Source: Massariosphaeria phaeospora (taxonomy: Eukaryota; Ascomycota; Dothideomycetes; Pleosporales). Taken from it: a DNA stretch of 64,000 nt. Positions 8,401 to 27,399 of this stretch are shown one piece after another. The stretch is from positions 868,001 to 932,000 of the forward strand of contig JAADJZ010000011.1 in assembly GCA_011032825.1 (NCBI GenBank). The letters run 5' to 3'. A program made the position numbers and the translations under genes. The notes below the pieces were generated by a model. It was given only the letters and a program-made list of their open reading frames with translations, was not told the DNA's origin and did not search any database. Position 1 is the stretch's first letter; every line of letters begins with the position of its first letter.

Positions 8401-8809
8401 AACTAGCACGTCCCCGAATCCAACACATGCAGCAGCGATTGGTCTCTTGCCTCATTCCCATACCTCTGTGGTGCCGGCTCCTACTTCCCACAGCATGCTT
8501 CATACGGACATCACTATGACATCGATACACTTCCTCAACCAAGCTATCCTTGAACTCGACCTTCTCGGTATGATCCCGCAGTGGCCTCGAGAGATCGCTC
8601 AATGGCAACAAGGCTGCTCGGCTCTGATGCGATGGGTCAAGATGCGCCTTCGCAACGGCGCACTGGAAGGGCGCGACAGTGCTGTTGGCATGGGGCCTAC
8701 CAGCGCTGGTACCGGCCGTGGAGGCGATGGCCTCGGCGAGCTGCTCGACGGAGTCATCGGCGTCTTGGAGAAGACCATGGGCCGCGGCTGGGAGGGGTGG
8801 GGCGTCTAG
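5462..8809 (+). CDS. C2H2 zinc-finger / Fungal_trans transcription factor
   Basis: Predicted nuclear DNA-binding regulator of about 994 residues. Inferred exons: 5462-5812, 5917-5942, 6000-6104, 6159-6431, 6484-7249, 7296-7433, 7484-8809. Joining exons 1-4 gives two tandem fingers near residues 112-160: the first contains SYTRAEHLRRHQKNH but has Cys-x-Cys rather than Cys-x2-Cys, and the second reads CEFPECGKTFYRVDLLQRH. A Ser/Pro-rich linker follows. The C-terminal half begins with FEQYLDNYWRHFHPSFPVVH, typical of the fungal-specific transcription factor domain (PF04082). Intron 2 (5943-5999) has a GC donor, GCAAGT. The acceptor at 6158 was preferred over the one at 6136 because it restores the last His of finger 2 and avoids a 33-bp intron. 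The gene lies 1.7 kb from the metabolic cluster; whether it controls the cluster is unknown. Confidence 0.85.
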
Positions 8810-10542: not shown

Positions 10543-11535
10543 TCACAGCCTCCCGGGCCAAAACCTCCCCCTATTCCCCTCCCGCCAAACCCCATCATGC
10601 GCCACCACAACCTCAACCCGCACCTCCCTCCCCCCCTCCTCCCTCACGCGCCCCTGCTTCATCAACCGCGCAATGCGCGCCACCGTCCCCGCCGCCACCT
10701 CCGTATCCGCATGCACACTCCGCAAGCCGCCGCGCCCATCCCCATACAGCGCAATACCCTTCTCGCCCGACAAAATGCGCGCGTCGTGGCAACAATCACC
10801 CCCCAGATAGACCCATTTCCCCGGCGCCGTGCGCGCCAGCACGTTGACGTGGCCGACGAGGTGGCCCGGCGCATCGACGACGTAGACGCTGCCGTCGCCG
10901 TAGAAGTCGACGACAGCGGGGAACCCCGCGAGCGGCGTCCACGCATGGCGCGTCTGGCATGCAGAGGCGTGCGCCGCGTCGCTGGCCCGCACGGGCGGCA
11001 GTTCGCGCGTGCGGTCGGAGGGGAGCTCGTCGGGGTTGAATATGTCGGCCGGGTAGAGCGGCCCGCCGCCGTGCGCGAGGAGGTGCTGCGTGCCGCTGCC
11101 GACGACGAACTCGGCGTTTGGGAAGTCGGCCGGCGTGCCGACGTGGTCCCAGTGCACGTGGCTGAGGATCACTGTGTTGATGTCTGTGGGCTCGAGACCG
11201 CCGGCTCGGAGACTGGCGGCGGCATCGGGAGATGCGGTCGTGGGTTGGCGCTGGGCGATGTGGTCTTGTTGCGCGGCGCGGTAGCCCGAGACGTCGCGTT
11301 TGAGGCCGAGGTCGAAGACTAGGTTTGTGGGGGTGGTTTTGGGATGCTGTGAGGGGTGTTGGATGAGGAAGGATAGGGAGGGGACGGTCGCGCGCTTGTC
11401 GGGGTCGGCGTCTGTGACGAAGAGTTTCTCGGGGAGGGTTAGGTGGCCGGCGTCGAGGGCGGATATGCTAACGTAGTTTTGATTGGGAGCCGGGGCTGGC
11501 AATGTTATGGTTTCGTGGTCGTCTAAGGATGACAT
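10543..11535 (-). CDS. Metallo-beta-lactamase-fold hydrolase 1 (lactonase-like)
   Basis: Intronless, 330 residues, ATG at 11535. It carries the dinuclear-zinc signature HVHWDH at residues 126-131. Further candidate ligands are a His in the APGHLVGH stretch near 225-229, the Asp in LGGDCCHD near 247, and a late His in VVVAHDG. This HxHxDH...H...D...H order is that of the AHL/gamma-butyrolactone lactonase branch (AiiA, AttM) and of fungal members such as MBL1 of the Fusarium benzoxazolinone cluster. The likely reaction is hydrolysis of a cyclic ester or amide; the substrate cannot be read from sequence. No signal peptide is evident, so it is probably cytosolic. It is divergently transcribed from the zinc ADH across a 332-bp spacer with two GTTGGAGA sites. 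A paralogue lies at 18541-19609. Confidence 0.85.
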   Translation of the reverse strand: MSSLDDHETITLPAPAPNQNYVSISALDAGHLTLPEKLFVTDADPDKRATVPSLSFLIQHPSQHPKTTPTNLVFDLGLKRDVSGYRAAQQDHIAQRQPTTASPDAAASLRAGGLEPTDINTVILSHVHWDHVGTPADFPNAEFVVGSGTQHLLAHGGGPLYPADIFNPDELPSDRTRELPPVRASDAAHASACQTRHAWTPLAGFPAVVDFYGDGSVYVVDAPGHLVGHVNVLARTAPGKWVYLGGDCCHDARILSGEKGIALYGDGRGGLRSVHADTEVAAGTVARIARLMKQGRVREEGGREVRVEVVVAHDGVWREGNRGRFWPGRL

Positions 11536-11867
11536 TGTGGAGGTAATGAGATAGTGTGAATGCTGCTATAAGGTGTTGGGAAGGAGAGTTGTCAAAAAAA
11601 TGGTGGAGTTTGGTTAGGCAAAGACCAATGTTTACAGATGGTTGATGTGATGATTTGTTGGAGAATGTTGGAGAAGCATTCGGACTTAACAGAATAGACA
11701 GCCCCACCTGAAGCTTGCTTACTACCCCGCAGCGGGGTCCTGCTAGATCGATGCGTACGGTTGTTTGAAAGAGCTGGGGGTTCGACTGTGATGATACCGC
11801 GTCTCCAATTTGATATATCTCATCTGTTGGGTTGCATCGTCTTCCTAAACCTCTTCGTTCATCAGCA
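11536..11867. promoter_or_regulatory. Bidirectional promoter of hydrolase 1 and alcohol dehydrogenase
   Basis: This 332-bp spacer separates two divergent cluster genes. Exact GTTGGAGAA copies start at 11657 and 11667, so they sit one helical turn apart on the same strand. A further CTCCAA lies at 11803-11808, and a perfect palindrome is at 11724-11738. The GTTGGAGA element matches the TTGG(A/G)G site known for yeast ADR1 and recurs in other promoters of this cluster. Binding by the ADR1-like regulator at 13087-15754 is inferred. Confidence 0.65.
11724..11738. promoter_or_regulatory. Palindrome ACCCCGC-A-GCGGGGT
   Basis: Two perfect 7-bp arms around a single A, in the divergent hydrolase/ADH promoter. 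It could bind a dimeric factor, or a CCCCGC-type (C2H2) factor on both strands. Only the symmetry is seen; the role is inferred. Confidence 0.4.
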
Positions 11868-12998
11868 ATGGCTACAAACCTTCCCAAGACAATGCGGGGC
11901 CAATTCCTCGAGGCCTTTCACAAACCATACGCACTTCAGTCAGTTTCCTTGCCGGAGCCTTCTGGACCTCACGACATCCTCATCAAAGTCGACGCCGCCT
12001 CGTACTGCCACACCGACTACGTGCTAGGCGAGGGCCAGATGCCGGGGTTCCCGAAAAAGTTCCCACATGTTGGTTGCCACGAATTTGCGGGGACAGTGGT
12101 ATCGCATTACGAATCTCCGAGTTCTCAATCGAGCGCATTCAAGACTGGAGATAGAGTCGGTGTACCGGGACGCGCTTTCCATGCGTGTGGGGCGTGCTTC
12201 GAGTGCGATGGATCCAAGGATCCAGTTAGCCAGGACGACCAGGGATATTCGGCATACTGTGTACACGCGGAAAATAACGGGATTAGTAGGGACGGTGGAT
12301 TTGCCGAATATGCTGTCGTCGATGCGAGGCAGCTTGCGCCTATACCGACTTCCATGACGGCGGTTGAAACCGCACCGCTGATGTGTGCGGGCATAACGAT
12401 CTATGCGGCCTTAAAGCGATGTCAGCTAGAGTCCGGCCAGCGCGTTGGTATCATGGGAGCTGGCGGTGGTTTGGGACACCTTGGTGTACAATACGCAGTC
12501 AAGATGTCGTTCAAGGTCCTTGCTGTAGACGCCGCGGATGGTCCCTTGGAGCTTGTCGAGAGCTTAAAGGTCGGTGCAAGGATTGCTGATGCTAGAGCAG
12601 AGAAGGCCGCCGACATCGTACAGCAGCTGGGAGCTGAAGACGGGAAGAAAGATAGGGGCGAAATGGGACTCGACGCCGTGATCGTGCTGCCGGAAAGCCA
12701 GGCAGCCTTCGATTACGCCATGACGCTGCTTAAAACTCATGGCAAGTGCGTAGTTGTATCATTTCCGGAGAAAGGGTTCCATATTTCCGCACACGACCTA
12801 GTTTTCCGGGATATATCCATAATCGGGAGTTTGGTAGGGAGTAACAGGATGTTGCGGGAAATGATGAATTTCTCTGCAAAGCACAACGTTCGAGCTATCG
12901 CCAAATCATTCCCACTTTCAAAGCTGAATGATCTTGTAGTTGACTATCATAAAGGAGGAGGAGGAAAGCTTGTTGTGGATATGTCGCTAGAGGATTAG
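11868..12998 (+). CDS. Zinc-dependent medium-chain alcohol dehydrogenase
   Basis: Single exon, 376 residues. The ATG at 11868 was chosen because homologues begin shortly before a GQFLEAF-like segment; the frame stays open upstream. Catalytic zinc ligands are expected at Cys47 (SYCHTDY), His71/Glu72 (GCHEFAG) and Cys173 (APLMCAGITIY). Structural zinc cysteines are at 107, 110, 113 and 131, with an unusually long gap before the last. The NAD(P)-binding motif GAGGGLGHLGVQ is at 198-208. The family interconverts alcohols and aldehydes or ketones. In this cluster the likely substrate is a hydroxyacid or alcohol released after lactone opening, but that is inference. It converges on the regulator gene with only 88 bp between stop codons. 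Confidence 0.9.
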   Translation: MATNLPKTMRGQFLEAFHKPYALQSVSLPEPSGPHDILIKVDAASYCHTDYVLGEGQMPGFPKKFPHVGCHEFAGTVVSHYESPSSQSSAFKTGDRVGVPGRAFHACGACFECDGSKDPVSQDDQGYSAYCVHAENNGISRDGGFAEYAVVDARQLAPIPTSMTAVETAPLMCAGITIYAALKRCQLESGQRVGIMGAGGGLGHLGVQYAVKMSFKVLAVDAADGPLELVESLKVGARIADARAEKAADIVQQLGAEDGKKDRGEMGLDAVIVLPESQAAFDYAMTLLKTHGKCVVVSFPEKGFHISAHDLVFRDISIIGSLVGSNRMLREMMNFSAKHNVRAIAKSFPLSKLNDLVVDYHKGGGGKLVVDMSLED

Positions 12999-13086
12999 TT
13001 TGAAATGTAATCGACGCCCATGTATCTGCGCCTTTCAAAAGCGAGACTAAACCCCGCGAGAGCGTTCTCTGAGCAATTGATTTATC

Positions 13087-15754
13087 CTATCCTGATTCCA
13101 ACATGTCAGCGTACAAATTTAATGCACTACCAATCACGTCGACGATTGCCCAAGTTTGTGCGCCTTTGAAGATCGTTGCCCAGACGCGCAATACACCAGC
13201 ACTCAGATACTTGGTATATGATGGAGAGTCAACAGCAACCTCTGGCGGAAGCGCAAACTCAGTCTCATCCAGCATGCTATTAACAATTGCGATTATCCTT
13301 TGCTCGTCTTCAGTGATCGGAGGTTCGGGATTAGGGACAGAAAGGGCTTCAAGCCACTTGCTCATAAGATATGCACACTCCAGTGTGCAAAGTGAATGTT
13401 GAATTGACCAAATGAAAGATTGTGTTTTTGCCACCAGGCGGTAACCAATTTTAATAGGTATGCTCAGCGCATGCGCTGAGTGAAGAACTGCTCTTGTAAT
13501 CTTTGGGGAGCGTTTGATTGTGGGACCGGCGCGGAAGGCATTTGCAATCAGCACCGGATCCCGAGTCTCGAGGGCCCGACCTGCGGTATCAACATATAAC
13601 CTGATATAAGCTAAACGAAGCAACGCGGTCGAGTTGAACGCAACTGGGCCATTAGGGCTCATGGGATCGAGTGAGGACTCAGGATTTCGTTTCCAGCCGA
13701 TTTGCCAATTTCTCAAAGCATTCTCGAGCGAGGCAACATCATCGTTGCTCAGGTCCCCAGGCCCGTCGAAACGGCATCTTGCGACTTGACGAACAAAGAA
13801 AATGTGCTGGATCAAAGCGTGGATAAGAGCATAATTTCCAGCACTGGATCCGTTCCAAGCAGTCACATCTCGCCCGTTTTTCGAGAACAGTCGCTGCAAC
13901 GCATCCTGGAACTGGATCTCAGGAATGCTTTGCTCCCTCGCTTCTCGCCACTCAGCTTCAGTGGATGCTTTGAACTCGATAGCACTGCATGGTAGAGTCA
14001 GCTTGACTTCGGACGTCAAGATAAAGGGGGGGATGTTGTAGACGATGCAATGAAGGTTGGAGAATCCGTAGACTATGAACTTCGTCCTTTTGGTTGTTTC
14101 TCGACGGACCCATTCTGCCCATGGAAGTTCTTCCCGCAACGGCTCGTTTTGAAGGCCATCGTCTCTTATCAGTGTGGCGAGAATACTCTGTATCGCAAGC
14201 GCTTCACGAAGGATCTCTTTGTGTTTTGCCCATGTACACAGCGCCATGAGCAATAGTAGCGCCTGTGCTGTCTGCATAAGGTCCTCGCCAAGGGGAGAAC
14301 AATCTACCTCAGAGGGGAGCCCAAGTGGTCCAACGGTTGAACAAGTTCGCGGTGGACTTCGTGCCATCCATGCAGCGTCGAATTCGTGAGAGGCCCAACG
14401 CTCCGAGTCTGCCCTGCGATGGCATTCTACGAGACGATTGTCCCGACGTCTGATCCGATATGTGGCGATGGCGCGGCTTGCATTGAACAGTTCTACGCCT
14501 TTCTCGCCTTCAAAGGTATATTGTGCCCCTATAGCAGCAATAGCTAGAACAAGCTCCACCGAAGATGTATTGACAGACATAGTGGGGATATGCAGGAAAG
14601 GCATGTGCTCATGAAAACCGTTGACATATGCTCCAATATATCTGCAAAGGGCCAATCGACTGGGTAGCTTAAAGTTGCTGGGCATAACACTCGAAAATTC
14701 GCCCAGGTCATCGGCAAGTTTCTGGCGGTCGTCCATGGATATGTCTGCCAAAGATTGCCGTCCTCGACTGTCGTTTTGTGTCAGATCTTCCGGCTGTAGT
14801 GAAGGTAGTCTAGACCCAAATCTTGAGAACGAATTGGGCTCCTCAGCATGCGTGTTTCCGTGGCCATTCGCAGATGCTGCTTGAGTTTCGACCGGTTGTA
14901 ACAGATCGTGGCCATAACTGAACGACTCGGGAGAGAAAAACGGCATAGGTTGCTCAGTGTTTATCAGGGATGCAAAGTGGTATGAACTCAGGGGTTCGTT
15001 GTCGAGAAAGGCAGCCAGGCTGTCTAGAGATTCACCAAAACTCGGTGCATGCATGTGCATGTTCAAGGAGGGCGAATGTGTTATTGTATGCTCCATTGTT
15101 TGGGTAATGCTTTCATCCTGTAACGCGACTGGACCTGGGATTTCGTGGTGAGTCGGACCGTTGGACATAGCCCCATGCAATGCTTGATATTCGGCAGCCA
15201 TGGAGAGCGCTGTTAGAGAGAACTCGTCGTTTTGTCCAGACATTGGGCCTATGTGCGGTTGCTGTAGTGGTGGTGGGTGGATATCAACGACGGCTGATGG
15301 CGCAGGGGACATCATGCCGGGAATTTCGGGGACAGGTCTCCCTGCATCGACACTGGTCCGCATACGCTTGTTTGGTCGCGAATCTTGCGGCGCAAAGCTA
15401 TCGTTCGGACTCTGGACCTTCTGACTGCTTTCTTTATGGTGAGTCAACCGCTCGTGTCGAACAAGAAGGTCGCTGTTGACATTAGCAAGCTCTTCTAGAA
15501 GCCTGATGTTGACGGTGTCCATACCTGCGGGTAAATGAGTAGCTACATTCAGAACAGCTGAAGGGCTTGATTCCACTGTCTGCCGGATATCAGAGGTCAG
15601 GCCGAAGAATGGGCAAATGGGAGGACGCACGGATGCGTTCATGACGCTGCAAGTGTTCAAGGCGAGCGAACAGGCGTTGGCAGTGTTGGCATTGGAAACG
15701 CTTCTCCTTCTTCCCCGCTGAAGGGAGCTGCTCAGGGCCAGTGCTTGACTCCAT
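13087..15754 (-). CDS. ADR1-like C2H2 / Fungal_trans regulator inside the metabolic cluster
   Basis: About 854 residues from inferred exons 15754-15631, 15579-15525 and 15472-13087. Splicing the two small introns creates two fingers: finger 1 with FQCQHCQRLFARLEHLQRH (C22, C25, H38, H42) and finger 2 with FSCSECSYSFTRSDLLVRH (C50, C53, H66, H71), joined by ERIHSGIKP. The helices R-x-E-H-L-x-R and R-x-D-L-L-x-R are those of yeast ADR1, whose site is TTGG(A/G)G. A disordered Ser/Pro region is followed by a PF04082-type domain (ADDLGEF...LALCRYIGAYVNGFHEHMPF, then many helices). The gene sits mid-cluster and is the obvious candidate pathway regulator. Its upstream region has TTGGGG at 15851 and 15885, allowing autoregulation. 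Without the splicing, the large open frame would look like a finger-less protein. Confidence 0.88.
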
Positions 15755-16307
15755 TCGAGCTAGAAGATGGTCGTTGAGCGTGTTGGTCCAAGCATGATTG
15801 GCCAGAAGGGGCCTGACAGGTCGGAGTAGCACGAGGGATTCGATGGAAGTTTGGGGACAAGACCAGAGCAAGGCAAAATGGGGATTGGGGAGCAGGCTCA
15901 AGAAAAGTGCGGAGAGGGCTGGCAGTCCATCTGGGGTGGACTGCGGAGACGGAACCAGATCACATGTGGGGGCGCCACCAACCGACGGCGCGGCTTGGCG
16001 GAGAGGACGCCAATCGCGGGCGCACCTCACGCGTCATGGCACGAAGAGGAAGTCTGTCACGCATGCCGAAGGGGGTGAGTTGATGATAGATGATGAACTG
16101 TGACTCTGATGTTTAGGTAGAGTGATGCATGTATTGTGTGTGGGGCGCGCCTTCCCCCTGACTGCACCTCGCTTGGGCCAGGCGACGCGTCGTGCCTGCC
16201 TGCCCCCTGCCTCCCGGTGCTCCCCCGAGCAACGGCCGAAGTGGTCTGTCGCCGTGCCAGGCACCACCCACTCTACCTCTCCCCGTGTCACCATCACACT
16301 CGGCCAC
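15755..16307. other. Upstream region of the ADR1-like regulator
   Basis: This 553-bp spacer contains the regulator promoter and the 3' flank of the small CMD gene. TTGGGG occurs at 15851-15856 and 15885-15890, possible weak ADR1-type sites. The regulator frame stays open upstream to about 16030, but nothing conserved appears there, so the ATG at 15754 is preferred. Confidence 0.45.
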
Positions 16308-16760
16308 CTACGCCCGCTCGCTCCTATCGCCCATCTCGCGCGGCGCCTCGCCCTTCTCCGCCATCTCGTTGAGCACCTTCTCGGCAGTTTTCATCGCGTC
16401 GACGCCCGCCGGCACGCCGCAGTAGGTGGTCGCGTGGATGATGGCTTCGCGGATCTCGAGCTCCGAGAGGCCGTTGTTGCGGGCGCCGCGGACGTGCACC
16501 GCCAGCTCCGGCGCGCGGTTGAGGGCCATGAGCATGCCGATGTTGATCAAGCTGCGTTGCTGCTTGCTGAGGCCCGGCCGCGTCCACGCGTAGCCCCAGC
16601 ACCACTCCGTCACGATTTCCTGGCCCGCCCGCGAGAACTCGGTGGAGCCGTTTTCCAGGGCGCGGTTCACGTATTCGTCCCCGACCACGCTCCGTCGCAT
16701 CTTCAGCCCCTCGTCGAACAGCTGCTTGTGGAGGTCATCGTATTTGGGATCGCTTGACAT
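16308..16760 (-). CDS. Carboxymuconolactone decarboxylase-family protein (single domain)
   Basis: Single exon, 150 residues, ATG at 16760. It shows the CMD/AhpD-like helical pattern: an N-terminal GDEYVNRAL region (residues 27-35), EWCWGYAW near 53-60, then the core HVRGARNNGLSELEIREAI near 88-106 and TTYCGVPAG. Length and motifs fit 4-carboxymuconolactone decarboxylases, which remove CO2 from gamma-carboxymuconolactone in the bacterial protocatechuate pathway. The AhpD Cys-x2-Cys peroxidase motif is absent. Fungal paralogues are often unassigned, so a lactone or beta-keto-acid substrate is inference supported by the two neighbouring lactonase-like hydrolases. Upstream spacer 16761-17115 contains GTTGGAGA and GTTGGGGA on this gene's strand. 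Confidence 0.85.
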   Translation of the reverse strand: MSSDPKYDDLHKQLFDEGLKMRRSVVGDEYVNRALENGSTEFSRAGQEIVTEWCWGYAWTRPGLSKQQRSLINIGMLMALNRAPELAVHVRGARNNGLSELEIREAIIHATTYCGVPAGVDAMKTAEKVLNEMAEKGEAPREMGDRSERA

Positions 16761-17115
16761 CTTGTTTGGCGGCGATTGGTGGACAATTGCTGTTCGGCTC
16801 AGGGGTGCGTGGAGTGGTATTGATGCTGAGATTGATGTTGAGATGAATGAATTCAGGCAAGAGGATGATTGAGGGATGTTTCAAGGGCAATATGGACTCC
16901 AGTGCAAGAACGTCTCCGAAGACCTTCACTCTTCTACCCCGCCGTGTGGGCCACCCACCTCGGTCTTTGGGGCTTGCTACCCCTCTTCTCCAACTTCCCC
17001 AACGATACCCCGCCGTTGCCTCACGCAGACTCAATGCGGGCTGGTTTGCACAGAGCAGAGGCCGAGGCGTGTAGCTTGTTTCAATATGGGAATGCTAATG
17101 TACAGTAGAAGCGTA
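16761..17115 (-). promoter_or_regulatory. Promoter of the small CMD gene with tandem GTTGGRGA sites
   Basis: Read on the minus strand, GTTGGGGA (17003-16996) and GTTGGAGA (16994-16987) lie head to tail with 9-bp spacing, about 230 bp upstream of the CMD start. The arrangement echoes the tandem pair in the hydrolase 1/ADH promoter. Regulator binding is inferred. Confidence 0.55.
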
Positions 17116-18144
17116 TTACGAGCCGTTTGTATGGTCCTGCCAATCTTCCTGGCCACCCAGATAGCGGTACACCACACGCGAATCGAGATCTCGGCAACGG
17201 TCATCCTTACTTGCGCCGTCATACGTCGCAAGGCCTACTTCGCCGAGCACGTTATTTGATCCAACAAGTTTCGCCATGTCAACTGCCAACGAGAAGTCTT
17301 TGCGCATCAGTTGCACCTTGAAGCCCTCCTTGTATCCTCCAGACGAGGGCGCCTCGGGGTATACATCCGGGACCGGACAGAATCGGTCGCAGATGGTGTT
17401 TTGTGCTGTGCCAGCGGCGTACACTTTCGCCAAAGTGCGTGGGTCTAATCCAGATCGCATGCCCATATCGAAGGCTTCAGAGCACGCTATTGCAATGATC
17501 CCAGACAGATAGTTGTTCGAAAGCTTCGCTGCAAGACCCAGTGAAGGACCCCCGCATGGGATGATATTTTCCCGCTTTCCCATAAGGCTCATCAAATGCG
17601 TGAGGCGGTCCACATTCGGATCAGTTTCTGCGCATCCTAGGAAAAATGCTATTGTCCCCTTCACAGCTCCCACCACGCCTCCGCTGACGGGCGAGTCGTA
17701 GAAAGAGGCCGCCGGGAAGTTCTGTGTAATGTGGTCCTTCACTGCCAGGCTCGTCGCCGTATCTATGGTAGAACAGTCGATGAGTAGCTTGTTCGAGATG
17801 TCGGTGCTACAGACGCCGTTGCGGGGGTCGAGATAGACGGATCGAACGTGAGCGCCTTCGGGGACCATGGTCATAATTGTTTCCTGGAGAGCCTTCAGCT
17901 AACTGTAAAACTTGTGACGCGGCATCTAACTCACCACCTGCTGCGCGACGTCTCTCGCACTTGAAGCTTTGTGCACCCTGTTGGGGAATTGCGCACAAAC
18001 TTCGTCTACCACCTTCTCTGCAACGTCAAAAACGTAAATCTGCGACTCCGAGGGCAATTTGTTTGCCAGATGGGTAAGCATGGGCTTTCCCATCGCCCCC
18101 AGGCCAATGAAACCCAATGTCTTGAACTCGAATGGTGCGCTCAT
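17116..18144 (-). CDS. Beta-hydroxyacid dehydrogenase 1 (3-hydroxyisobutyrate dehydrogenase-like)
   Basis: About 325 residues from exons 18144-17935 and 17883-17116; an acceptor 9 bp earlier is possible. The N-terminal Rossmann motif is GFIGLGAMGKPM (residues 11-22). The substrate-binding segment DSPVSGGVVGA and the catalytic-Lys segment GLAAKLSNNYLSG are both present. The family uses NAD(P) to oxidise 3-hydroxyacids, or in the reductive direction to reduce succinic or glyoxylic semialdehyde. It is divergent from hydrolase 2, sharing the 18145-18540 spacer. A homologue of nearly equal length (326 residues) lies at 24078-25142 with an intron at a different position, so the two are old paralogues rather than a recent tandem copy. 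The substrate is unknown. Confidence 0.88.
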
Positions 18145-18540
18145 ATTGCAGACTGTCGAGCGAGAGAAGATGCTACGGAAATGCAATCTTAATCGAGAGA
18201 TGTTGATGTCGCAAAGTTCCTCGCGCGTCAAATAGCGGAGATCGATCTTAACTCCATGCAGAGCTAGCCGGTCCGTCGAAGACGACTCCAATTCCACCCC
18301 ACCCGCAGTAGTGTGGGGTAAAGATCCCTCCAAGCTTCAACATCTTTGTGCAGTTGCCTCGCAACTTACCCCAAAGCGGCGGCATGAAACCACGTAGGTG
18401 CTCTTACCAAGAAACGTCCGTAAAGTAATGTCCTCCATACATTCTCCACTCCCAGCTGCATCTGCGAGGATGCCGTAGCCTGACAATCCTCTTTGACCTT
18501 GTATTGGCCGCCTTTTGTCGTCTTCTCGCGCACCTGTGCA
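18145..18540. promoter_or_regulatory. Bidirectional promoter of beta-hydroxyacid dehydrogenase 1 and hydrolase 2
   Basis: 396 bp between divergent starts. It contains core TTGG(A/G)G sites as CTCCAA at 18286-18291 and 18328-18333 and CCCCAA at 18369-18374. A degenerate relative of the cluster element, GTGGAGAATGTATGGAG on the minus strand, lies near 18436-18452. No exact 8-mer GTTGGAGA was seen here. Regulation with the rest of the cluster is inferred. Confidence 0.45.
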
Positions 18541-19609
18541 ATGTCTTCTACAGTCTATGTTAGTCAAACGGGCCCGCCCTCACCGCCACTCGAAATTGCA
18601 ACTGTGTCAGTCCACGCGCTTTCCGGGGGACACTTCTCACTTCCTGAATATCAATTTGTTCATCCCGTGTCCCGAGAGGCGCGGAAGACTGTTCCTTCGC
18701 TTTCATTCCTCATACAACACCACAATGTCACAAATGGGAAGGTGACGCGGATCGTGTTCGACTTAGGGTTGAGGAGAGATATAACAAGATATGCGCCAGC
18801 CATACAAAAGCATGTGGAGACACGGCAGCCAATGTGCACAGATCCAGACGTTGTAAAGAGCCTGGCTAATGGTGGGTTGGCGCCAGATGATATTGACTAC
18901 GTTTTATACTCGCATGTAAGTCAACATGAGCAATACCACAGTAGCTTGCTTAGGGTCTATAGTAACTCCTGTGTAGGTACATTGGGATCATATTGGCGAA
19001 CCGCGAGACTTTCCCACCTCTACCTTTCTCGTCGGCCATGGAGCACTCGCGCTCTTAAACGGTTCATCGTCGTCTCTTCGCGGCGGACACTCGTTCTTTG
19101 AACACGATCTTCTCCCCGAGGGCCGCACCATCGAGCTCTCCAATCCTTCCCATAACTCAAACAAACCCAGACCATTCACAATACCCCAAGAACTGGGTAA
19201 TATCAATCTGGAGCAGCCCTGGGCACAGTATGGCCACCTCCCAGAAACCCTCGACGTGTTCAACGACGGCTCGCTCTTTATCGTGAATGCGCCCGGCCAC
19301 CTCCCTGGCCATGTCAACATCCTCGCCAGAGTGGCCCAGGACCATTACGTATACTTGGCTGGAGACGCCTGCCACGATAGACGGTTGTTGACGGGCGAGA
19401 AGGAGATTGGCGAGTGGGAGGATGCGCACGGTCACGTCTGCTGCATACATGCGGACCGAAAGCAAGCGGAAGAGACTATCAGGCGTATCAAAGCGCTGGA
19501 GATGGATGGCGTTGAGGTCATATTTGCGCATGACGTAGAATGGGAGACTAGACCCGCAAACAGCTCTCGGTTCTTTGGGGTGGAAGCAGAGTATTTCGAT
19601 CGATCATGA
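18541..19609 (+). CDS. Metallo-beta-lactamase-fold hydrolase 2 (lactonase-like)
   Basis: 335 residues from exons 18541-18915 and 18977-19609. The intron falls inside the metal motif, after the first His of HVHWDH (residues 125-130). Other candidate ligands are in NAPGHLPGHVN, AGDACHD and IFAHDVEW. It aligns along its length with hydrolase 1: shared blocks include TVPSLSFLIQH, VFDLGL and GHVN. It has an insertion of roughly 30-40 residues before the INLEQPWAQYGHLPETL region. A lactonase-type reaction is likely, in the cytosol; two paralogues may handle different ring sizes or successive intermediates, which is inference. The CMD gene downstream is on the same strand with its own promoter. Confidence 0.87.
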
Positions 19610-20037
19610 TTTCACTATTTTGTAACCATCCAACTCTAGCATCTCAGCATTTTAGATACTCTGTTAGCAAGGCCAGAAGTACCATTTCGCATGTAGTTCT
19701 TTTACCCGCAACACAGCATTTCCCTCCTCAACCCCGCCAATCTCGCGGCTTTGCCCACAATTAAACCGTTGGAGAATGTGGGGCAAGTTTCCGCCAATCA
19801 CGTCGAAGTCACATCTCCAACTTCCCTCTCCAACCTCAGTTCTGGCCCGAGGCACAGTGGCTGTTACTCACTCACCACAATGCACATAGGTACAGAACTG
19901 CAGACCTAGACTAGCCCCAATCGAAACAGCTTCCACTTCAATTCCACTCAAGACCATCCGCAACACCCCAAGAGCACACACGCACACACACACACACAAC
20001 GGACCCGCTCCCACCAGCATCCAGCATCCTCACCAAC
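19610..20037 (+). promoter_or_regulatory. Promoter of the two-domain CMD gene with three GTTGGAGA sites
   Basis: GTTGGAGA lies at 19768-19775 (+), inside GTTGGAGAATGTGGGG. Two inverted copies, TCTCCAAC, lie at 19814-19821 and 19827-19834. A CA-rich simple repeat at about 19980-20000 precedes the ATG. The mix of forward and inverted half-sites recalls the dyad UAS1 known for ADR1 at yeast ADH2. Binding is inferred. Confidence 0.6.
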
Positions 20038-20949
20038 ATGACCCTCGCCACGGAACAACAATCGCTGAAAGAGCGCTTCGACGCCGAACTCGGCCCCGCC
20101 GCCTTCGACTCCTCATGGCAGCGCCTCCTCAAACACAGCCCGGAGATGTTCGCCGCCAGCCTCCGCCTGACCAGCATCCCCCTCACGAAACGCCACCTCC
20201 CCCCCAAACTCCAATCCCTCATCTCCCTCGCCGTAGCCTCCGCCTCCACCCACCTACACACCCCCTCCATCCACCAGCACACCGCCGCGGCGCTCTCGCA
20301 CGGCGCCTCCGCCGCCGAAATCGTCGAAGTGCTGTGCCTCACGTCAACGCTCGGCATCCACGCGTGCAACATCGGCGTGCCGCTGCTGTGCGAGGTGCTG
20401 CGCGAAGCGGGGCGCGAGATGCCGAGCGGCATGGAGGGTATGAGTAAAGAGCAGTGGGCGCTGAAGAAGGAGTTCGAGGATAAGAGGGGGTATTGGCATG
20501 GGTTTTGGGAGGACTTTTTGAGGGCGAGTCCGGAGTTTTTTGGCGCGTATGTGGAGTTTTCGGGGGTGCCGTGGACGAATGAGGGGGGGAGGGGGGTGCT
20601 GGAACCGAAGGTACGCAGACATGTTTTCCCTTCGTTCGTTTACACTTATTCTATTCTATTGCATGCACGCATTCTCCTTCGAATCTCCCGCTAACTCCCG
20701 CCTTTCTTTCCATCCACCCAGGTCAAAGAACTCATCTACTGCGCCTTCGACGCCGCCGCCACGCACCTCTACCAGCCCGGCCTGAAACTGCACATGAAGA
20801 ACGTGCTGGGCTATGGCGGCACGCCAGAGGAGATCATGGAGGTGCTGGAGCTGGCCACGTTGTTGTCTATTAGCACGATGCATGTTGGGTTGCCGATTCT
20901 GGAGGAGGAGTTGGCGGCGGCGGGGGCGGCGGGGGCGGCGGGGACGTAG
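20038..20949 (+). CDS. Two-domain carboxymuconolactone decarboxylase-like protein
   Basis: 266 residues from exons 20038-20610 and 20722-20949. The protein is an internal duplication. Repeat 1 (about residues 33-125) and repeat 2 (about 160-258) share in order SPE(M/F)F, a (S/G)(I/V)P segment, (A/S)xxTHL, a His about 8-9 residues later, a (G/S)xxxEE/AEI(M/V)EVL stretch and (I/L)xxxxxVGLP(I/L)L-type endings. This is the CMD/AhpD helical fold twice, giving a built-in pseudo-dimer. No Cys-x2-Cys is present, so peroxidase activity is unlikely. The THL...H histidines are candidate active-site residues. The single-domain CMD at 16308-16760 is a distant relative. A lactone or keto-acid substrate is inferred from the neighbours. 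The C-terminus ends in an Ala/Gly-rich tail. Confidence 0.8.
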
Positions 20950-21681
20950 GTGGTGGTTGGTGAGGGTGAGGGATGAGTGTGGAGGGGGTGGGGAGGGATG
21001 GATGGGTATGTGAGGTGGTTTTTGAGTGTTATGTATGTATGATTTTACGATATTTTCCCGTCTGAGAAATTTGAAAGTATTAGCAAACGGGAGATGAGAT
21101 CAAAGCCCCTCCCTCGTATTCTAGAAGACTGATCACGTGGGTGTGTATGTGTATGTGCCCTTAGGCGTGCAGTTAGGAGAGTTGGAGATGAGATGGTATG
21201 ATGGGGAAGTGGGTGGGTTTTGGTACTAGTGTTAGTGTTGCAATGTATATGTGCTTAGTTTCAGTGCAGAGGGGGTAGAAGGTCAGTGGGCGTTTTGAGA
21301 ATGCCAGAGAACGATGAGAGAGTTGCGTGGGCTAGGTATGTGTGCTGGGGTGTTTGATAAAGATATGCAACTGGAACAGTTCCTAGGAAATCATCCATAC
21401 CAAGAGAAACCCCGAACAGCCAAGTCCCTTATGCACGACTACAGTTTGCAACTCTCTCTGCCGAGTCGACATCCAATCCCGTGCTATACATACGAGGATT
21501 TGCAATAAACCCGTTTCACGGCCTGGAAAGCTCACGAAAGCGTACGACAAGGACTTCAATCTGCTCAAGCGAACAAGCCAACTTTATTACTAACTAAGCC
21601 CATACCAACGAGTCCCCACCGGCCTTCCCAGCGCCTCACGTAAACACCCCCACCCCCCATCACAGCCACAGCCACTCCCCT
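20950..21681. other. Tail-to-tail spacer between two-domain CMD and MFS genes
   Basis: This 732-bp spacer lies between convergent genes. It has GT-rich runs after the CMD stop and one exact GTTGGAGA at 21181-21188, away from any recognised promoter. No coding sequence is supported. Confidence 0.5.
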
Positions 21682-23364
21682 CTAGATCTGATACCTAAAA
21701 TCCGGCTCGCGATCCGTATACATCTGTCCCGGCGGCATGACATACCCCTCCGCAATCTTCCTATCCTTGCCCTTCTCCCTCCTCCGATAAATAAACCTAA
21801 TAACCCACCACCCACACCACGCAACCGCCAAACAACCCAGTGACCACGCATGCCCAAGCGTAAACGCGGGCGCAGCCTTCGTCTGATAGATCTGGCCGCT
21901 GACGACGCCGCCGATATTGGTGAGCGTCAGCAGGATGCCGAGCGAGGCGGCGCGCTTGCCGTCGCCGGCGCAGTTGCCGGACAGCCAGGTGATGTTGCCG
22001 CCGGTGCAGAGGAAGCACGCTGTGGCGATCAGGTACGTGGCGAAGTAGCGGACGCTGGCGGGGACCGGCGAGAGCAGGATGGCGTAGCCGGCGATGCCGA
22101 TGGGCGCCATGGTGATGAGGGGCAGGAAGCGCGTTTTGTAGCGGTCGGAGAGGTAGGCGCCGAGGGCGTAGACGAGGGCGCCCCAGAGGTTGACGGGGAT
22201 GACGAGGTATTGCGCCTGGGGGGCGTTAGTGGGCGGTGTCTGCACGAAAGGATACATGTGGGGCCTTGGGATTGGTAACGTACCTGTACCGTGCTGTAGT
22301 GAAATCCGTCTCTGATGATAATCGGCAGGAACGTGCCAAAGCCGTAAAGAATAGTAACGACGCAGATCTGGATGCAGCCGTGGACCCAGCTCTTGACGTC
22401 CTTGGCTGCTGCCATGATATCCGCTTTCGAGTAGTGGCCGTCGCCGCCGGAGTAGGCCTCGGCGCGTTCGGCCCGCACCCGCATGATTTTCTTGTCTTCT
22501 TCGTTCAAGAACCAGGCAGTTTCGTAGCTCTTGGGAACAAGAAAGATGCAACAAGCGGCCCAGACAAGGGTAAGTATGCCTTCGAGCACGTAAAGCCTGA
22601 CGCATGTTAGAACTGTTCTTGTTGTAGGACGTACCGGGGAGGAGGGACTGCTCACCACCGCCATCCGGGCCACCCGCCAACCCCATCCATGTACAAAATG
22701 CCCCAAGCGATCAGGCCGCCAAACGCACCACTCAGCGCACTCGCGATGAAGAGATACGCGACTCGGATGCCCAACTCTTCTCTGCTATACCAGTTGCACA
22801 GAAACAATGTCATGGCTGGAAACAAGCATCCTTCGAAGAAGCCGAGGAAGATGCGGCAGGTAACGAGCCCGCCAAAGTTCTGAACGAAACCAGTGCAGAG
22901 ACACACAACACCCCAGCAGAAGGTGATGGTGGGAATTACGCGGTGAAACTGCAGGCGTTTGACGTAGATAGATGTAGGGAATTCGGCAATGATGTAGAAG
23001 ATGTAGAAAACCGAGACGGCGGTCTGGACTAATGTTAGCATTCATTCATTCATTGACAGGGTTTCTGAGCAGTGATGCGGAAAGAGAAGACATGACTGAC
23101 ATTCAACTGGCCGGGCTTCAACCCAATGTCTTTGGTCATCCCCTGTGTGGCCGCAAATCCGATATTACCACGGTCAAGATATGAGATCAGCATCAAAATC
23201 ATCATAACCGGAGCCACAAAACGATCCAGTTTCCTTCTCACTGCGGCCTCCTTTTTCTTGAACTCGACGCTCTCAGGCGTTTCATCCTGCTGGAGATATT
23301 CCCTCGTGATTGGTTGCTGCTTCTCATCAGCAAGAGAGAGCTCCCGCGGTGGTGAGTCTGCCAT
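21682..23364 (-). CDS. MFS organic-anion permease, allantoate/nicotinate (Dal5/Tna1) type
   Basis: About 492 residues from exons 23364-23101, 23023-22656, 22596-22284 and 22215-21682. A hydrophilic N-terminus with KLDRFVAPVM is followed by LISYLDRGNIGFA (TM1 with the family's D-R-x-N motif), FYIIAEFPTSIYVKR (TM2), CRIFLGFFEGCLFPA and GWRWLYVLEG, then six more helices. These are marks of the anion:cation symporter family, which carries carboxylates such as allantoate, nicotinate, pantothenate and phthalate. It is plausibly the plasma-membrane importer of the cluster's substrate. It shares a divergent promoter with beta-hydroxyacid dehydrogenase 2. Substrate inferred only at the level of organic anion. 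Confidence 0.88.
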
Positions 23365-24077
23365 GATGGCGAGATCCGGGAAGTGAGGGTAGGTAGGGGA
23401 TGGAAAAGATAAAGGATAGAGACGTTGGATGTGATGGAACGTAGTTAAGGATACAAATAGAGGGATAGCGGTGCCTGTTCTCCAACCAACACCAGTTCCA
23501 AACAGGATTAATTCGCTACACCAAGACGCGTCTATCCCCACGTTTCTTGTCGTTTGTCTCCGAAGCTGAAGCGGGATAAACTAGTAGGGGTATACTTTGG
23601 CACACCACCTACCCGGTTCACGTCTTCCGCTAGTGACCCAATGAACGCTGACAACAGCTTTCGCGCACTAGCTTAGGGCGTCGAATTTCGTTCCGTGACT
23701 CTGTCCATGACACTGAAATGTTGGATGGCGTCGGTGGTTAGAGCGAAAGCAGATTAGCCGAGTGCTTCGGCTGCCCTCCGGTGCTTTCCCCACATTTCTC
23801 CATCCCCAACCGCTTCTCCAACGCGGGGCGGAAATGCGGGGTTCGGGGTGCCGAGAGCTTGAAGGCTTCCATCTCCAACTTGTTCGGAACGCTTTACACA
23901 AGTTCGGAACGTAGCCTTGGGAGATTTTTGGAGTTTCAAATTGAGAGCTCCTATACCTCTGCATCTTCCGCTTGCAGGATTCTTGAGTACATAGTATCAT
24001 ACCTAGCGAAAACAATTCGAAACGGGTGACAGGGCACGCAGAATTGCAAAAGGAACTTCAATACAAATTCTTCAACA
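23365..24077. promoter_or_regulatory. Bidirectional promoter of the permease and beta-hydroxyacid dehydrogenase 2
   Basis: 713 bp between divergent starts. TCTCCAAC (GTTGGAGA on the minus strand) is at 23479-23486, 23815-23822 and 23872-23879, and TCCCCAAC at 23803-23810. A near copy of the GGAGAATGTGGGG block seen at 19772 occurs inverted at about 23789-23802. A 10-bp direct repeat, GTTCGGAACG, starts at 23882 and 23902. This is the densest concentration of the cluster element in the window. Function is inferred. Confidence 0.62.
23882..23911. repeat. Two direct copies of GTTCGGAACG, 20 bp apart
   Basis: Exact 10-mers start at 23882 and 23902, so they face the same side of the helix. They lie next to GTTGGAGA sites in the permease/dehydrogenase promoter. 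They may bind a second factor; the role is unknown. Confidence 0.6.
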
Positions 24078-25142
24078 ATGGCATCTCCAGACAAGACTAT
24101 AGCCTTCGTAGGTAAGCAATCCAGTCCATGTATATTAATAGCGAGAAAATCCCAATGTCTCGTCTACTCACACACAGTCGCTAACATTGCAACAGGACTA
24201 GGGGTGATGGGTTATCCAATGGCCCTTAATCTTCGAAAAGGCCTGGATTCGTCATACACCCTTCTTATTTGCGACGTTGTTCCAGACGCGATTACTCGGT
24301 TCCAAAAAGATGCGGAAGGACAGGGGCCAGTCGAAGTCATCAAGTCTGGATACGAGGCGATACAGAAGGCGAACATAGTCGCAACAATGCTACCGGACGC
24401 CGCCGCCGTTAAGAAAGTCTACCTCGATCCCACCAACGGCATACTCGCGGGCGCAGAGGCGACGCTCAGGGAGAAAAAAGAGAAGAAGATCATAATGGAG
24501 TGCGGAACCATAGAAACTTCGACGATCCTGGAAGTAGGAAAGGCAACTGAGGCATCAAGTGCGGCGTCGCAAGTAACTTTTGTTGACGCGCCCGTCTCGG
24601 GAGGACCAATGGGTGCCCAGGACGGCACACTGACGTTCATGGTCGGTACGAACAACAAGGACGTATTTCCGACGGTGAAGAGCACGCTGGCCCACATGGG
24701 TAAAGAAGAGTCCGTATTCCTGTGTGGAGACGTGGGAGCCGGAACAGCCTTCAAAGTAATCAACAACTATCTCTCGGCCATTACTTCCCTGGCGGCCTCG
24801 GAAGCCCTGAATATCGGCGCCAAGATGAACCTCGACCTCTCGCTCCTCACCGATGTGATCAACGTGTCCGGTGGTCAGTGCTGGGTGACATCGAAGTCGA
24901 ATCCTGTACCGGGCATTCAGGCCAACGTTCCGAGTTCGAGAGACTACGAAGGTGGATTCAGGATCGAGCTCTGCGCAAAGGTACTGAAGATGGGCAGCGA
25001 TCTGGCCGAAATGGTGGGCGCGCGGACGATCCTGGATAAGCCAACTCTGGAGGCATTTGCTGAGGCGAAGAACGACGAGAGATACAAGGGGAAGGATGCG
25101 AGAGTGGTGTACAAGTGGCTGAATGAGAGCGAGCGGAAATGA
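24078..25142 (+). CDS. Beta-hydroxyacid dehydrogenase 2 (3-hydroxyisobutyrate dehydrogenase-like)
   Basis: 326 residues from a 34-bp first exon (24078-24111) and 24196-25142. Splicing completes the Rossmann motif as IAFVGLGVMGYPM; the unspliced frame is open but breaks the motif, which supports the intron. Other marks are VDAPVSGGPMGA, the catalytic-Lys segment GAGTAFKVINNYLS, and a C-terminal KDARVVYKWL close to the RVVYRYL of paralogue 1. Likely NAD(P)-dependent oxidation of a hydroxyacid, or reduction of a semialdehyde, in the cytosol. The gene is divergent from the permease and 453 bp upstream of the co-oriented aldehyde dehydrogenase, consistent with consecutive steps. Confidence 0.88.
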   Translation: MASPDKTIAFVGKQSSPCILIARKSQCLVYSHTVANIATGLGVMGYPMALNLRKGLDSSYTLLICDVVPDAITRFQKDAEGQGPVEVIKSGYEAIQKANIVATMLPDAAAVKKVYLDPTNGILAGAEATLREKKEKKIIMECGTIETSTILEVGKATEASSAASQVTFVDAPVSGGPMGAQDGTLTFMVGTNNKDVFPTVKSTLAHMGKEESVFLCGDVGAGTAFKVINNYLSAITSLAASEALNIGAKMNLDLSLLTDVINVSGGQCWVTSKSNPVPGIQANVPSSRDYEGGFRIELCAKVLKMGSDLAEMVGARTILDKPTLEAFAEAKNDERYKGKDARVVYKWLNESERK

Positions 25143-25595: not shown

Positions 25596-27399
25596 ATGTC
25601 GACGCTCCCCGCCTTCGAGCACACGGCGCTCGACAGCATCCCAACCACGGCGGCGCAGATTCGCGCCAGCTTCCTGTCGCACAAGACGCGGCCGTTGGAG
25701 TTCCGAATCCGGCAGCTGCGGAAGCTGTACTGGGGGTAGGCTGCCCATGGCCCCGTGTCTCGCGTCCACCACTGCGATGCTAATGCTGCATGTGCCCAGG
25801 CTGAAAGACCACGAAGACGCCATTACCGAAGCCTGCTTGAAGGACCTGGGCAAGCCGCCACTCGAGACGTACCTCAGCGAGTACGCCTGGTGCGTCAACG
25901 ATGTGCTGTTCATGGCCCAGAACCTGCACCGGTTCGCCAAAGACGAGCGCGCCGAGGACACGATTCTGATGAACAAGTTCTTTGCGCCCACGATCAGGAA
26001 AGATCCGATGGGCGCCGTGTTGATCTTAGGGTATGTGTGCTTGTGTATCCACGCTATAGACACAGAGGCGTACTGACGATGGTACATTGCAGAGCCTATA
26101 ACTTCCCCCTCCAACTCGCCATCGGGCCCTTGATTGGCGCCATTGCTGCAGGTTGCACCGCCATCCTCAAGCCCTCGGAGCAAACCCCCAACGCTGCGGT
26201 GGTGATGCAGAAGATCATTACCGAATACCTCGACCCCTCCTGCTACGCGTGCGTGCAAGGCGCCATCCCCGAGGCCACGGCGCTGCTGGACGAGAAGTGG
26301 GACAAGATCTTCTACACGGGCTCAGTCAGTGTCGCGACTATCGTTGCGAAGAAGGCCGCAGAGACGCTGACACCCGTCACGCTGGAGCTCGGAGGCCGGA
26401 ACCCTGCCATCATCACCAAGCACGCCAACGTGAAGCTGGCGGCGCGGAGGCTGCTTTGGGCCAAGACGATGAACGCGGGCCAGGTGTGCGTGAGCCACAA
26501 CTATACACTGATCGACAAGGACATGGTACAGCCGTTTATTAACGCCATGCGAGACTCGTTCCAGGAGTTTTATCCCCAGGGCGCCCGCAGCTCGCCCGAC
26601 TTTGCGAGGATTGTGAACAAGAGGCAATTTCAGCGCATCAAAAAGATGCTGGACGATTCAAACGGCAAAATTGTGTTAGGCGGCACCATGGACGAGAATG
26701 ACCTCTTCATCGAGCCCACTGTCGTCCAGCTCGACAGCGCCGACGACAGCCTGCTCCGAGACGAAAGCTTCGGGCCGCTTCTCCCCATCCTGCCGGTGGC
26801 CGACTTGGACGAGGCCATCAAGATTGCGAACGAAGTCCAAGACACCCCGCTAGGACTGTACCCGTTTGGCAACAAGCAAGAAGTGGAAAAAGGTACTCGA
26901 TGCTTCAACCCGCCGCTTTCCACACACTGACACGCAAATAGTCCTCGCGCAAACACGCTCTGGCGGCGTCTCCATCAACGATGGTTTCTGCCATGCAAGT
27001 ATCCCCACCTTGGCCTTTGGCGGCGTAGGCTCTTCCGGCCAGGGAGCCTACCGCGGCAAAGCCTCGTTCGACGTCTTCACCCATCGTCGCTCAATCGCAA
27101 AGACACCTGCCTGGATTGAGGCCCTAATGGACATCCGCTATCCTCCCTACACAGCTAACAAGCGGCGGAAATACGCTGCCCTGAACGATATTAAACCGAA
27201 CTTTGACCGTGAGGGCCGCGACCTCGGGTGGTGGTCGTGGTTGATGGGCCTTGTGGGTGTCAAGACCCTAGCTGCTGTTGTTCGTAAGTGATGCCGATAA
27301 GTGTGGGAAAGGCCGTGAATGATGGAGTGAGATGTCAACTGACGTAGCTTAGTCGCCGTTGGTGTGCGGCTCTACCTCCAGCGGCGGGCGAAATTGTAG
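25596..27399 (+). CDS. Class 3 (fatty-aldehyde type) aldehyde dehydrogenase with C-terminal membrane tail
   Basis: About 519 residues from exons 25596-25735, 25800-26030, 26093-26892, 26942-27283 and 27353-27399. Motifs in order: VLILGAYNFPLQL (cofactor entry), KPSEQTPN, TLELGGRNP with the general-base Glu, NAGQVCVSHNY with the catalytic Cys, and ESFGPLLP. The order and size match ALDH3/Hfd1-like enzymes. The last exon completes a hydrophobic C-terminus (LAAVVLAVGVRLYL) followed by QRRAKL, a likely tail anchor for ER or mitochondrial outer membrane. The usual GSTxxG after FxTG is changed to GSVSVA. It would oxidise the cluster's aldehyde or semialdehyde to an acid; a general detoxifying role is the alternative. 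Confidence 0.88.

What the first reader, a model, noticed from the sequence alone, without database searches (positions are those of the whole stretch)
11657..23879. Cluster spacers enriched in GTTGGAGA, the site expected for the cluster's own ADR1-like regulator
Seen: exact GTTGGAGA (either strand) occurs in cluster spacers at 11657, 11667, 16987, 19768, 19814, 19827, 21181, 23479, 23815 and 23872, with GTTGGGGA at 16996 and 23803. By eye only two other non-cluster copies appear in the window (48766 in a gene, 61731), plus one in the regulator's own coding sequence (14056). A given 8-mer is expected about twice in 64 kb counting both strands. Known: yeast ADR1 fingers (EHL and DLL helices) bind TTGG(A/G)G, and ADH2 UAS1 is a dyad of this half-site. 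Seen: the regulator at 13087-15754 has R-x-EHL-x-R and R-x-DLL-x-R helices once its two small introns are removed. Inference: a pathway-specific regulon read by its resident regulator.
Basis: partly seen in the sequence, partly recalled or inferred. Interest (0 to 1): 0.82.

Follow-up and report, generated by a model that had tools for sequence, protein, structure and literature searches.

The report
Shared switch sites across fungal cluster
A fungal cluster of breakdown-enzyme genes carries many copies of one short DNA word in its promoters, the same word that yeast's Adr1 protein binds, so the genes are probably switched together by an Adr1-like protein encoded among them; this is a good new example of a known kind of gene control.

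Summary
GTTGGAGA occurs 16 times in the window. Genome-wide, GTTGGRGA runs at 0.096 per kb (4,052 in 42.08 Mb); 14 lie in 11536-24077, 11 of them in 2,225 bp of upstream spacers (0.21 expected). GTTGGAGA is the most enriched 8-mer of the six upstream spacers. Four of the genome's 32 direct pairs (gap up to 30) lie in four different promoters here. The regulator's spliced fingers match yeast ADR1 at the recognition positions, invariant in the 42 relatives where a pattern found both fingers. The 8-mer lies in the yeast ADH2 UAS1 half-site (PMC6769490). Parts of the cluster are kept together in other ascomycetes. The regulator's own promoter and HIB1/MBL2 lack the full 8-mer. Verdict: real, well-supported candidate regulon; new member of a known kind (HxnR, Adr1). 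No binding or expression data.

The parts
5462..8809 (+). Second ADR1-type regulator (TF2): two C2H2 fingers plus Fungal_trans; rival reader of the sites (gene model after 6103 not resolved)
   Evidence: PF04082 in both large ORFs; spliced fingers CECGRSYTRAEHLRRHQKNH / CEFPECGKTFYRVDLLQRHQER
10543..11535 (-). MBL1, lactonase-like metallo-beta-lactamase-fold hydrolase
   Evidence: PF00753; best PDB match N-acylhomoserine lactonase, E 1e-8
11657..11674 (+). Direct pair GTTGGAGA-AT-GTTGGAGA in MBL1/ADH divergent promoter
11868..12998 (+). ADH, zinc alcohol dehydrogenase family
   Evidence: PF08240, PF00107
13087..15754 (-). Cluster regulator TF, 854 aa; introns 15580-15630 and 15473-15524
   Evidence: hand-made gene model; PF04082 and zinc-finger matches; relatives; helices
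15439..15697 (-). Two-finger DNA-binding region of TF (residues 20-71, spans both introns): helices RLEHLQR and RSDLLVR
   Evidence: coordinates
16308..16760 (-). CMD1, carboxymuconolactone decarboxylase-like
   Evidence: PF02627; best PDB 4g9q E 1e-22
16987..17003 (-). Direct pair GTTGGGGA-A-GTTGGAGA upstream of CMD1
17116..18144 (-). HIB1, 3-hydroxyisobutyrate-dehydrogenase-like (one small intron, exact ends chosen by hand)
   Evidence: PF03446, PF14833 in the large exon; intron candidates
18286..18374 (-). Three core-only TTGGRG sites in HIB1/MBL2 divergent promoter (no full 8-mer)
18541..19609 (+). MBL2, paralogue of MBL1 (about 42% identical)
   Evidence: the second exon alone gave no Pfam match
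19768..19775 (+). GTTGGAGA upstream of CMD2
19814..19834 (-). Direct pair GTTGGAGA-GGGAA-GTTGGAGA upstream of CMD2
20038..20949 (+). CMD2, carboxymuconolactone decarboxylase-like, 266 aa after splicing
   Evidence: PF02627; homologues
21181..21188 (+). GTTGGAGA in convergent CMD2/MFS spacer (not a promoter)
21682..23363 (-). MFS transporter (introns not fully resolved)
   Evidence: PF07690 in one exon
23479..23486 (-). GTTGGAGA in MFS/HIB2 divergent promoter, MFS-proximal
23803..23822 (-). Direct pair GTTGGAGA-AGCG-GTTGGGGA in MFS/HIB2 promoter
23872..23879 (-). GTTGGAGA in MFS/HIB2 promoter
24078..25142 (+). HIB2, 3-hydroxyisobutyrate-dehydrogenase-like
   Evidence: PF03446, PF14833; best PDB 2gf2 E 2e-47; homologues

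Best explanation
GTTGGRGA is the cis-element of a pathway-specific regulon. Shown by sequence: the sites are strongly and specifically enriched in four upstream spacers of the cluster (serving MBL1, ADH, CMD1, CMD2, MFS, HIB2), each with a direct pair 9-13 bp start to start, and the sites nearest each gene lie about 120-270 bp upstream of its start codon. Shown: the cluster encodes a two-finger C2H2 + Fungal_trans regulator whose recognition residues are those of yeast ADR1, and the 8-mer is in the yeast ADR1 half-site. Inferred: finger 1 (R-E-H-R) reads GRG and finger 2 (R-D-L-R) reads TTG; two molecules sit side by side on direct pairs about one helical turn apart; and the resident regulator induces the enzymes and the transporter for uptake and breakdown of an unidentified lactone- or carboxylic-acid-type compound. 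HIB1 and MBL2 would be driven through weaker core TTGGRG sites. GCGGGGT boxes, Mig1/CreA-like, in the same four spacers may add carbon-catabolite repression.
For: Enrichment against the whole genome and against random spacers with motif choice allowed. Top 8-mer and, extended by A, top 9-mer among words seen at least 3 times in the six spacers. 4 of 32 genome-wide direct pairs with gap up to 30 (19 for the reversed word), and 4 of the 14 with gap up to 5, are in the cluster, one in each of four promoters. No flanking similarity beyond the 8-mer apart from a mild A/T-G at positions 9-10, and no listed larger repeat or tandem array at the sites. Fingers 27 of 52 identical to ADR1 fingers (ADR1 letters recalled, checked against 2adr_A), with identical -1, 2, 3, 6 residues, which are the same in the 42 of 120 listed relatives in which the pattern found both fingers. 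UAS1 palindrome TCTCCAACTTA.TAAGTTGGAGA and half-site oligo (PMC6769490 Table 2, passage); Adr1 consensus TTGGRG (PMC3897899 Table 2, passage). TF kept next to the enzymes: fused gene models HIB1-CMD1-TF in Stemphylium (P0064) and CMD1-TF in Kalmusia (P0015), and neighbouring locus tags in 8 species.
Against: No binding, expression or mutant data. A second ADR1-type regulator with the same recognition residues ends 1.7 kb from MBL1's 3' end. No full 8-mer at the TF promoter or at HIB1/MBL2. One copy is in a 3'-3' spacer (21181). No orthologous promoter DNA could be searched, so conservation of the sites is untested. ADH2-type close dyads were not found in the cluster. A small Poisson P for some 8-mer is not in itself rare here (2.8% of draws).
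Confidence: 0.68

Rival explanations
1. The sites are real, but the neighbouring ADR1-type regulator TF2 (5462-8809), or another ADR1-type protein elsewhere in the genome, is the main reader, alone or in competition with the resident TF.
For: TF2 fingers carry R-E-H-R and R-D-L-R at -1, 2, 3, 6, as the resident TF does, and TF2 also has Fungal_trans. The recognition code cannot separate them. The resident TF's promoter lacks the full 8-mer.
Against: The resident TF lies inside the cluster and is kept near CMD1, HIB1, CMD2 or HIB2 in other genera. The 1.46 kb upstream of TF2 have one core TTGGRG.
Confidence: 0.2
2. The enrichment is not regulatory: copies spread by a repeat element or by compositional bias of these spacers.
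For: The two GTTGGRGA copies in each pair are themselves close tandem copies; some 8-mers reach similar Poisson P elsewhere (2.8% of draws).
Against: Flanks are unrelated; no larger repeat was listed with the sites (20 of 31 direct families and 25 of 44 inverted pairs were shown) and no tandem array lies there. An 8-mer with at least 9 copies over at least 4 pieces was not seen in 83,221 draws. The word is only 16% commoner genome-wide than its reversal (4,052 against 3,500).
Confidence: 0.04
3. The shared element is for a general regulator of another class (for example a carbon-catabolite regulator of the CreA type).
For: GCGGGGT co-occurs in exactly the four of six spacers that have GTTGGRGA (6 observed, 0.5 expected); the Mig1 consensus is SYGGGG (PMC3897899 Table 2, passage).
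Against: GTTGGRGA does not fit SYGGGG. Close direct pairs are rare genome-wide (32). GCGGGGT was picked after the fact and is common in this window (24 copies against 9.7 in shuffles), so its co-occurrence is weak evidence either way.
Confidence: 0.05

Closest known systems
HxnR, nicotinate regulon of Aspergillus nidulans (PMC8478523, passages read)
   Same: Pathway-specific regulator with two C2H2 fingers and PF04082, encoded among catabolic genes and an MFS transporter it controls, found across ascomycetes, with bidirectional promoters.
   Different: Different enzymes; HxnR sites there are predicted only (GHGGGG) and not determined, whereas here an enriched word emerges from the DNA itself. 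Control by the regulator is shown there and only inferred here.
Saccharomyces cerevisiae Adr1 and ADH2 UAS1 (PMC6769490; PMC2527678; passages)
   Same: Two-finger domain with the same recognition positions and the same half-site GTTGGAGA.
   Different: Adr1 activates glucose-regulated genes and binds a 22-bp palindrome at ADH2; here a cluster-resident protein and direct repeats. Orthology to Adr1 was not tested.
Mxr1 of Komagataella phaffii (search listing and start of abstract only)
   Same: Zinc-finger regulator of methanol, acetate and ethanol metabolism genes; that it is Adr1-like is recalled.
   Different: That it is not cluster-resident is recalled; not compared by any search.

Membership tests
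Pathway-specific C2H2/Fungal_trans-regulated catabolic cluster (HxnR kind) | Regulator with two C2H2 fingers plus PF04082 | tested here: met
   PF04082 E 3e-16, above cut-off; finger matches E 3e-9 (37 bits, cut-off 40) and 7e-5 (23.4 bits, cut-off 25.2), both just under Pfam's curated cut-offs; both fingers complete after splicing
Pathway-specific C2H2/Fungal_trans-regulated catabolic cluster (HxnR kind) | Regulator encoded among enzyme and transporter genes | tested here: met
   that they form one catabolic pathway is inferred
Pathway-specific C2H2/Fungal_trans-regulated catabolic cluster (HxnR kind) | Cluster kept together in other species | tested here: met
   Only TF, CMD1, HIB1, CMD2 and HIB2 were followed: fused models and close locus tags in 8 species, order partly rearranged; other species not comparable; MBL1, ADH, MBL2, MFS not followed
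Pathway-specific C2H2/Fungal_trans-regulated catabolic cluster (HxnR kind) | Expression of cluster genes depends on the regulator and an inducer | not testable with these tools
   No expression data held
ADR1-type DNA recognition | R-x-E-H-L-x-R / R-x-D-L-L-x-R helices | tested here: met
ADR1-type DNA recognition | Half-site TTGGRG / GTTGGAGA at target promoters | tested here: met
   with PMC6769490
ADR1-type DNA recognition | UAS1-type palindrome of two half-sites | tested here: not met
   No inverted or everted full-site pair with gap up to 30 in the cluster (the everted search began with TCTCCAAC only); direct pairs instead
Orthologue of yeast ADR1 | One-to-one orthology outside the fingers | not tested
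   No tree with ADR1 was built
Orthologue of yeast ADR1 | Proximal accessory region before finger 1 | not tested
   19 residues precede finger 1 in the model; not compared

The most novel reading that the evidence does not exclude
An ancient Adr1 half-site grammar has been rewired in filamentous ascomycetes from palindromes to direct repeats one helical turn apart, and is used by a family of cluster-resident C2H2/Fungal_trans regulators; here two such regulators lie in or beside one cluster and could compete for the same sites, one as activator and one as repressor or sensor of another signal.
Probability: 0.15. Interest if true: 0.55.

Novelty: new member of a known kind. Interest (0 to 1): 0.4.

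Why it matters
It gives a sequence-derived candidate binding site for a class of fungal regulators (C2H2 + Fungal_trans) of which HxnR, the nearest precedent, has only predicted sites, and ties it to a conserved set of enzymes for which I found no paper in the held library. If true, the motif can be used to find the inducer and further regulon members in Pleosporales, and to test how two-finger proteins with the same recognition residues avoid cross-talk.

Tried and rejected
Other genomic direct-pair loci as trans members of the regulon: 20 of the 28 pairs outside the cluster lie in fetched stretches (L009-L026). None of L009-L028 has more than 5 sites in about 10 kb. At 7 of the 10 loci with gaps up to 5 bp the pair lies inside a stop-to-stop frame of at least 150 codons. 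19 ORFs near these 10 loci gave no metallo-beta-lactamase, CMD or HIBADH family; they gave one short-chain dehydrogenase, and HET, CoA-ligase, DUF2237, SMI1/KNR4 and CCCH families, and a sub-threshold receptor L domain. No second regulon locus was found in this part; 8 pairs and all single sites were not examined.

Orthologous promoters: viral contigs gave nothing; metagenome scans were capped at 0 and the other collections hold bacteria, archaea, phages and plasmids, so I had no fungal DNA outside this genome. Literature: the listings (3 papers; 20 of 112; 4; 6; 1; 0) showed no paper on this cluster by title or abstract start. First permutation control was faulty (overlapping pieces counted twice) and was replaced.

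The pathway's substrate was not identified; the lactone reading rests on family names and PDB sequence matches only.
Full report
Observation. The window lies at C3:868001-932000 of a 42,079,485-bp assembly that holds 4,052 GTTGGRGA and 3,500 of the reversed word. Against that density the span 11536-24077 has 14 where 1.21 are expected, and the five upstream spacers (MBL1/ADH, CMD1, HIB1/MBL2, CMD2, MFS/HIB2; 2,225 bp) have 11 where 0.21 are expected. Core TTGGRG is up as well: 21 in the six spacers against 4.0, and 94 in the window against 68 in shuffles. In held background, DNA without long ORFs is not richer than the rest (4 in 56.7 kb against 20 in 214.4 kb, chosen sites dropped).

Motif choice. 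Among 8-mers seen at least three times in the six upstream spacers (the five plus the TF's), GTTGGAGA ranks first (9 against 0.44 expected) and GTTGGAGAA is the first 9-mer. The background there contains loci picked for carrying motif pairs, which makes the test stricter. In random draws of six spacer-sized pieces, no 8-mer with at least 9 copies over at least 4 pieces appeared (0 of 45,194 and 0 of 38,027). The Poisson P alone was matched in 2.8% of draws (1,263 and 1,050), which is why I rest the case on the spread.

Arrangement. Direct pairs (gap up to 30) exist at 32 places in the genome (19 for the reversed word), and 4 are in this cluster, one in each of four promoters: start-to-start distances 10, 9, 13 and 12 bp. 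Only 14 of the 32 have gaps up to 5 bp, and these include all four. Inverted pairs exist at 2 places and everted pairs (pattern beginning TCTCCAAC) at 1, none in the cluster. Full sites lie 125-135 bp from the MBL1 start, 197-207 from ADH, 230-239 from CMD1, 207-266 from CMD2, 119 from MFS (the nearest; the others 443-512) and 202-271 from HIB2 (the fourth at 595). The flanks are unrelated apart from A/T-G just 3', and no listed larger repeat or tandem array carries the sites, save a 21-bp match between the 16987 and 21181 neighbourhoods that is the motif pair itself. The HIB1/MBL2 spacer has three core TTGGRG but no full 8-mer; the TF promoter has two TTGGGG. No full or core site lies in the 454-bp spacer before the aldehyde dehydrogenase at about 25597-27400 (family), which suggests a right edge.

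Regulator. Removing two small introns (15580-15630, 15473-15524) gives an 854-residue protein with Fungal_trans and finger matches just under Pfam's cut-offs. Helices are RLEHLQR and RSDLLVR. Of the 120 relatives listed (of 641 found), a pattern for both fingers was met in 42, and all 42 have R-E-H-R and R-D-L-R at -1, 2, 3, 6. The other 78 were not judged; many are listed with Fungal_trans only, like the window's own predicted protein P0001 (758 aa). The fingers are 27 of 52 identical to those of ADR1 (ADR1 letters recalled, matched to 2adr_A). Table 2 of PMC6769490 (passage) gives the UAS1 palindrome CCGGCCTCTCCAACTTA.TAAGTTGGAGAGG: each half contains GTTGGAGA on one strand. PMC3897899 Table 2 (passage) lists Adr1 as TTGGRG. 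The assignment of finger 1 to GRG and finger 2 to TTG is recalled knowledge of ADR1.

At 5462-8809 (+) lies a second gene with Fungal_trans and, after splicing a GT-AG and a GC-AG intron, fingers CECGRSYTRAEHLRRHQKNH and CEFPECGKTFYRVDLLQRHQER. Its recognition residues are the same. The DNA-binding code therefore predicts the same site for both, and 'the site expected for the cluster's own regulator' is not a unique expectation. What favours the resident TF is synteny: gene models fused across HIB1-CMD1-TF in Stemphylium lycopersici and CMD1-TF in Kalmusia, and close locus tags read by eye from the best-120 listings: Kalmusia 004152/004155/004156 (TF/CMD2/HIB2), Paraconiothyrium 001781/001785/001786, Alternaria panax 07648/07652 (TF/CMD2), Plenodomus lindquistii 012032/012038 (TF/HIB2), Neocucurbitaria cava 003303/003298, Mollisiaceae 010657/010653/010660, Cadophora gregata 003189/003186, Rhinocladiella mackenziei 11251/11252. 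These are 8 species, reaching from Pleosporales to Helotiales and Chaetothyriales (lineages of Lophiotrema, a TF relative, Rhinocladiella and Cadophora looked up; the rest recalled). Other species could not be compared (tags from different strains or not shown), and in Stemphylium the listed HIB2 lies on a contig of another length (600607 against 840316). Order is partly rearranged, so the grouping rather than the exact order is conserved. Whether TF2 travels with the cluster too was not tested.

Function. MBL1 and MBL2 (lactonase-like; best PDB names N-acylhomoserine lactonase and 4-pyridoxolactonase for MBL1), two CMD proteins (for CMD1), two HIBADH-like dehydrogenases (for HIB2), an alcohol dehydrogenase and an MFS carrier read as a catabolic set for a lactone- or acid-type compound. 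This is inference; the substrate is unknown. GCGGGGT, fitting the Mig1 consensus SYGGGG, occurs in exactly the four of six spacers with GTTGGRGA (6 against 0.5 expected). It was picked after the fact, and the word is frequent in this window (24 against 9.7 in shuffles), so joint control by carbon repression and a specific activator is only a plausible design, untested.

Known or new. HxnR of A. nidulans (PMC8478523, passages) is the nearest precedent: two C2H2 fingers, PF04082, resident in and controlling catabolic clusters. Its sites are predicted, not determined, there. The present case is a new member of that kind with an unusually clear sequence-derived site, and it resembles ADR1 at the half-site level while failing the ADH2-type dyad test. 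No paper on this cluster showed in the listings, within the held open library only.

Noticed in passing
window 5462-8809 (+): Second ADR1-type C2H2/Fungal_trans regulator with a GC-AG intron between finger exons; same recognition residues as the cluster regulator.
   Followed up: partly
window 11724, 11732, 16936, 17007, 19731, 23836: GCGGGGT / ACCCCGC boxes (Mig1/CreA-like) in exactly the four spacers that carry GTTGGRGA; 11724-11738 is a near-palindrome. The word is common elsewhere in the window too (24 copies).
   Followed up: partly
window 21172-21192: The odd copy at 21181 in the 3'-3' spacer is preceded by a degenerate partner (GTTAGGAGA), so it also looks like a direct pair (pair I20).
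   Followed up: no
window 13087-15754: The database's own predicted protein for this gene (P0001, 758 aa) is listed without the fingers, as are many listed relatives, so the finger domain is easily lost in automatic gene models.
   Followed up: partly
G000:C34:349679-349726: Three GTTGGAGA in a 20-bp tandem repeat unit; an unrelated array.
   Followed up: no
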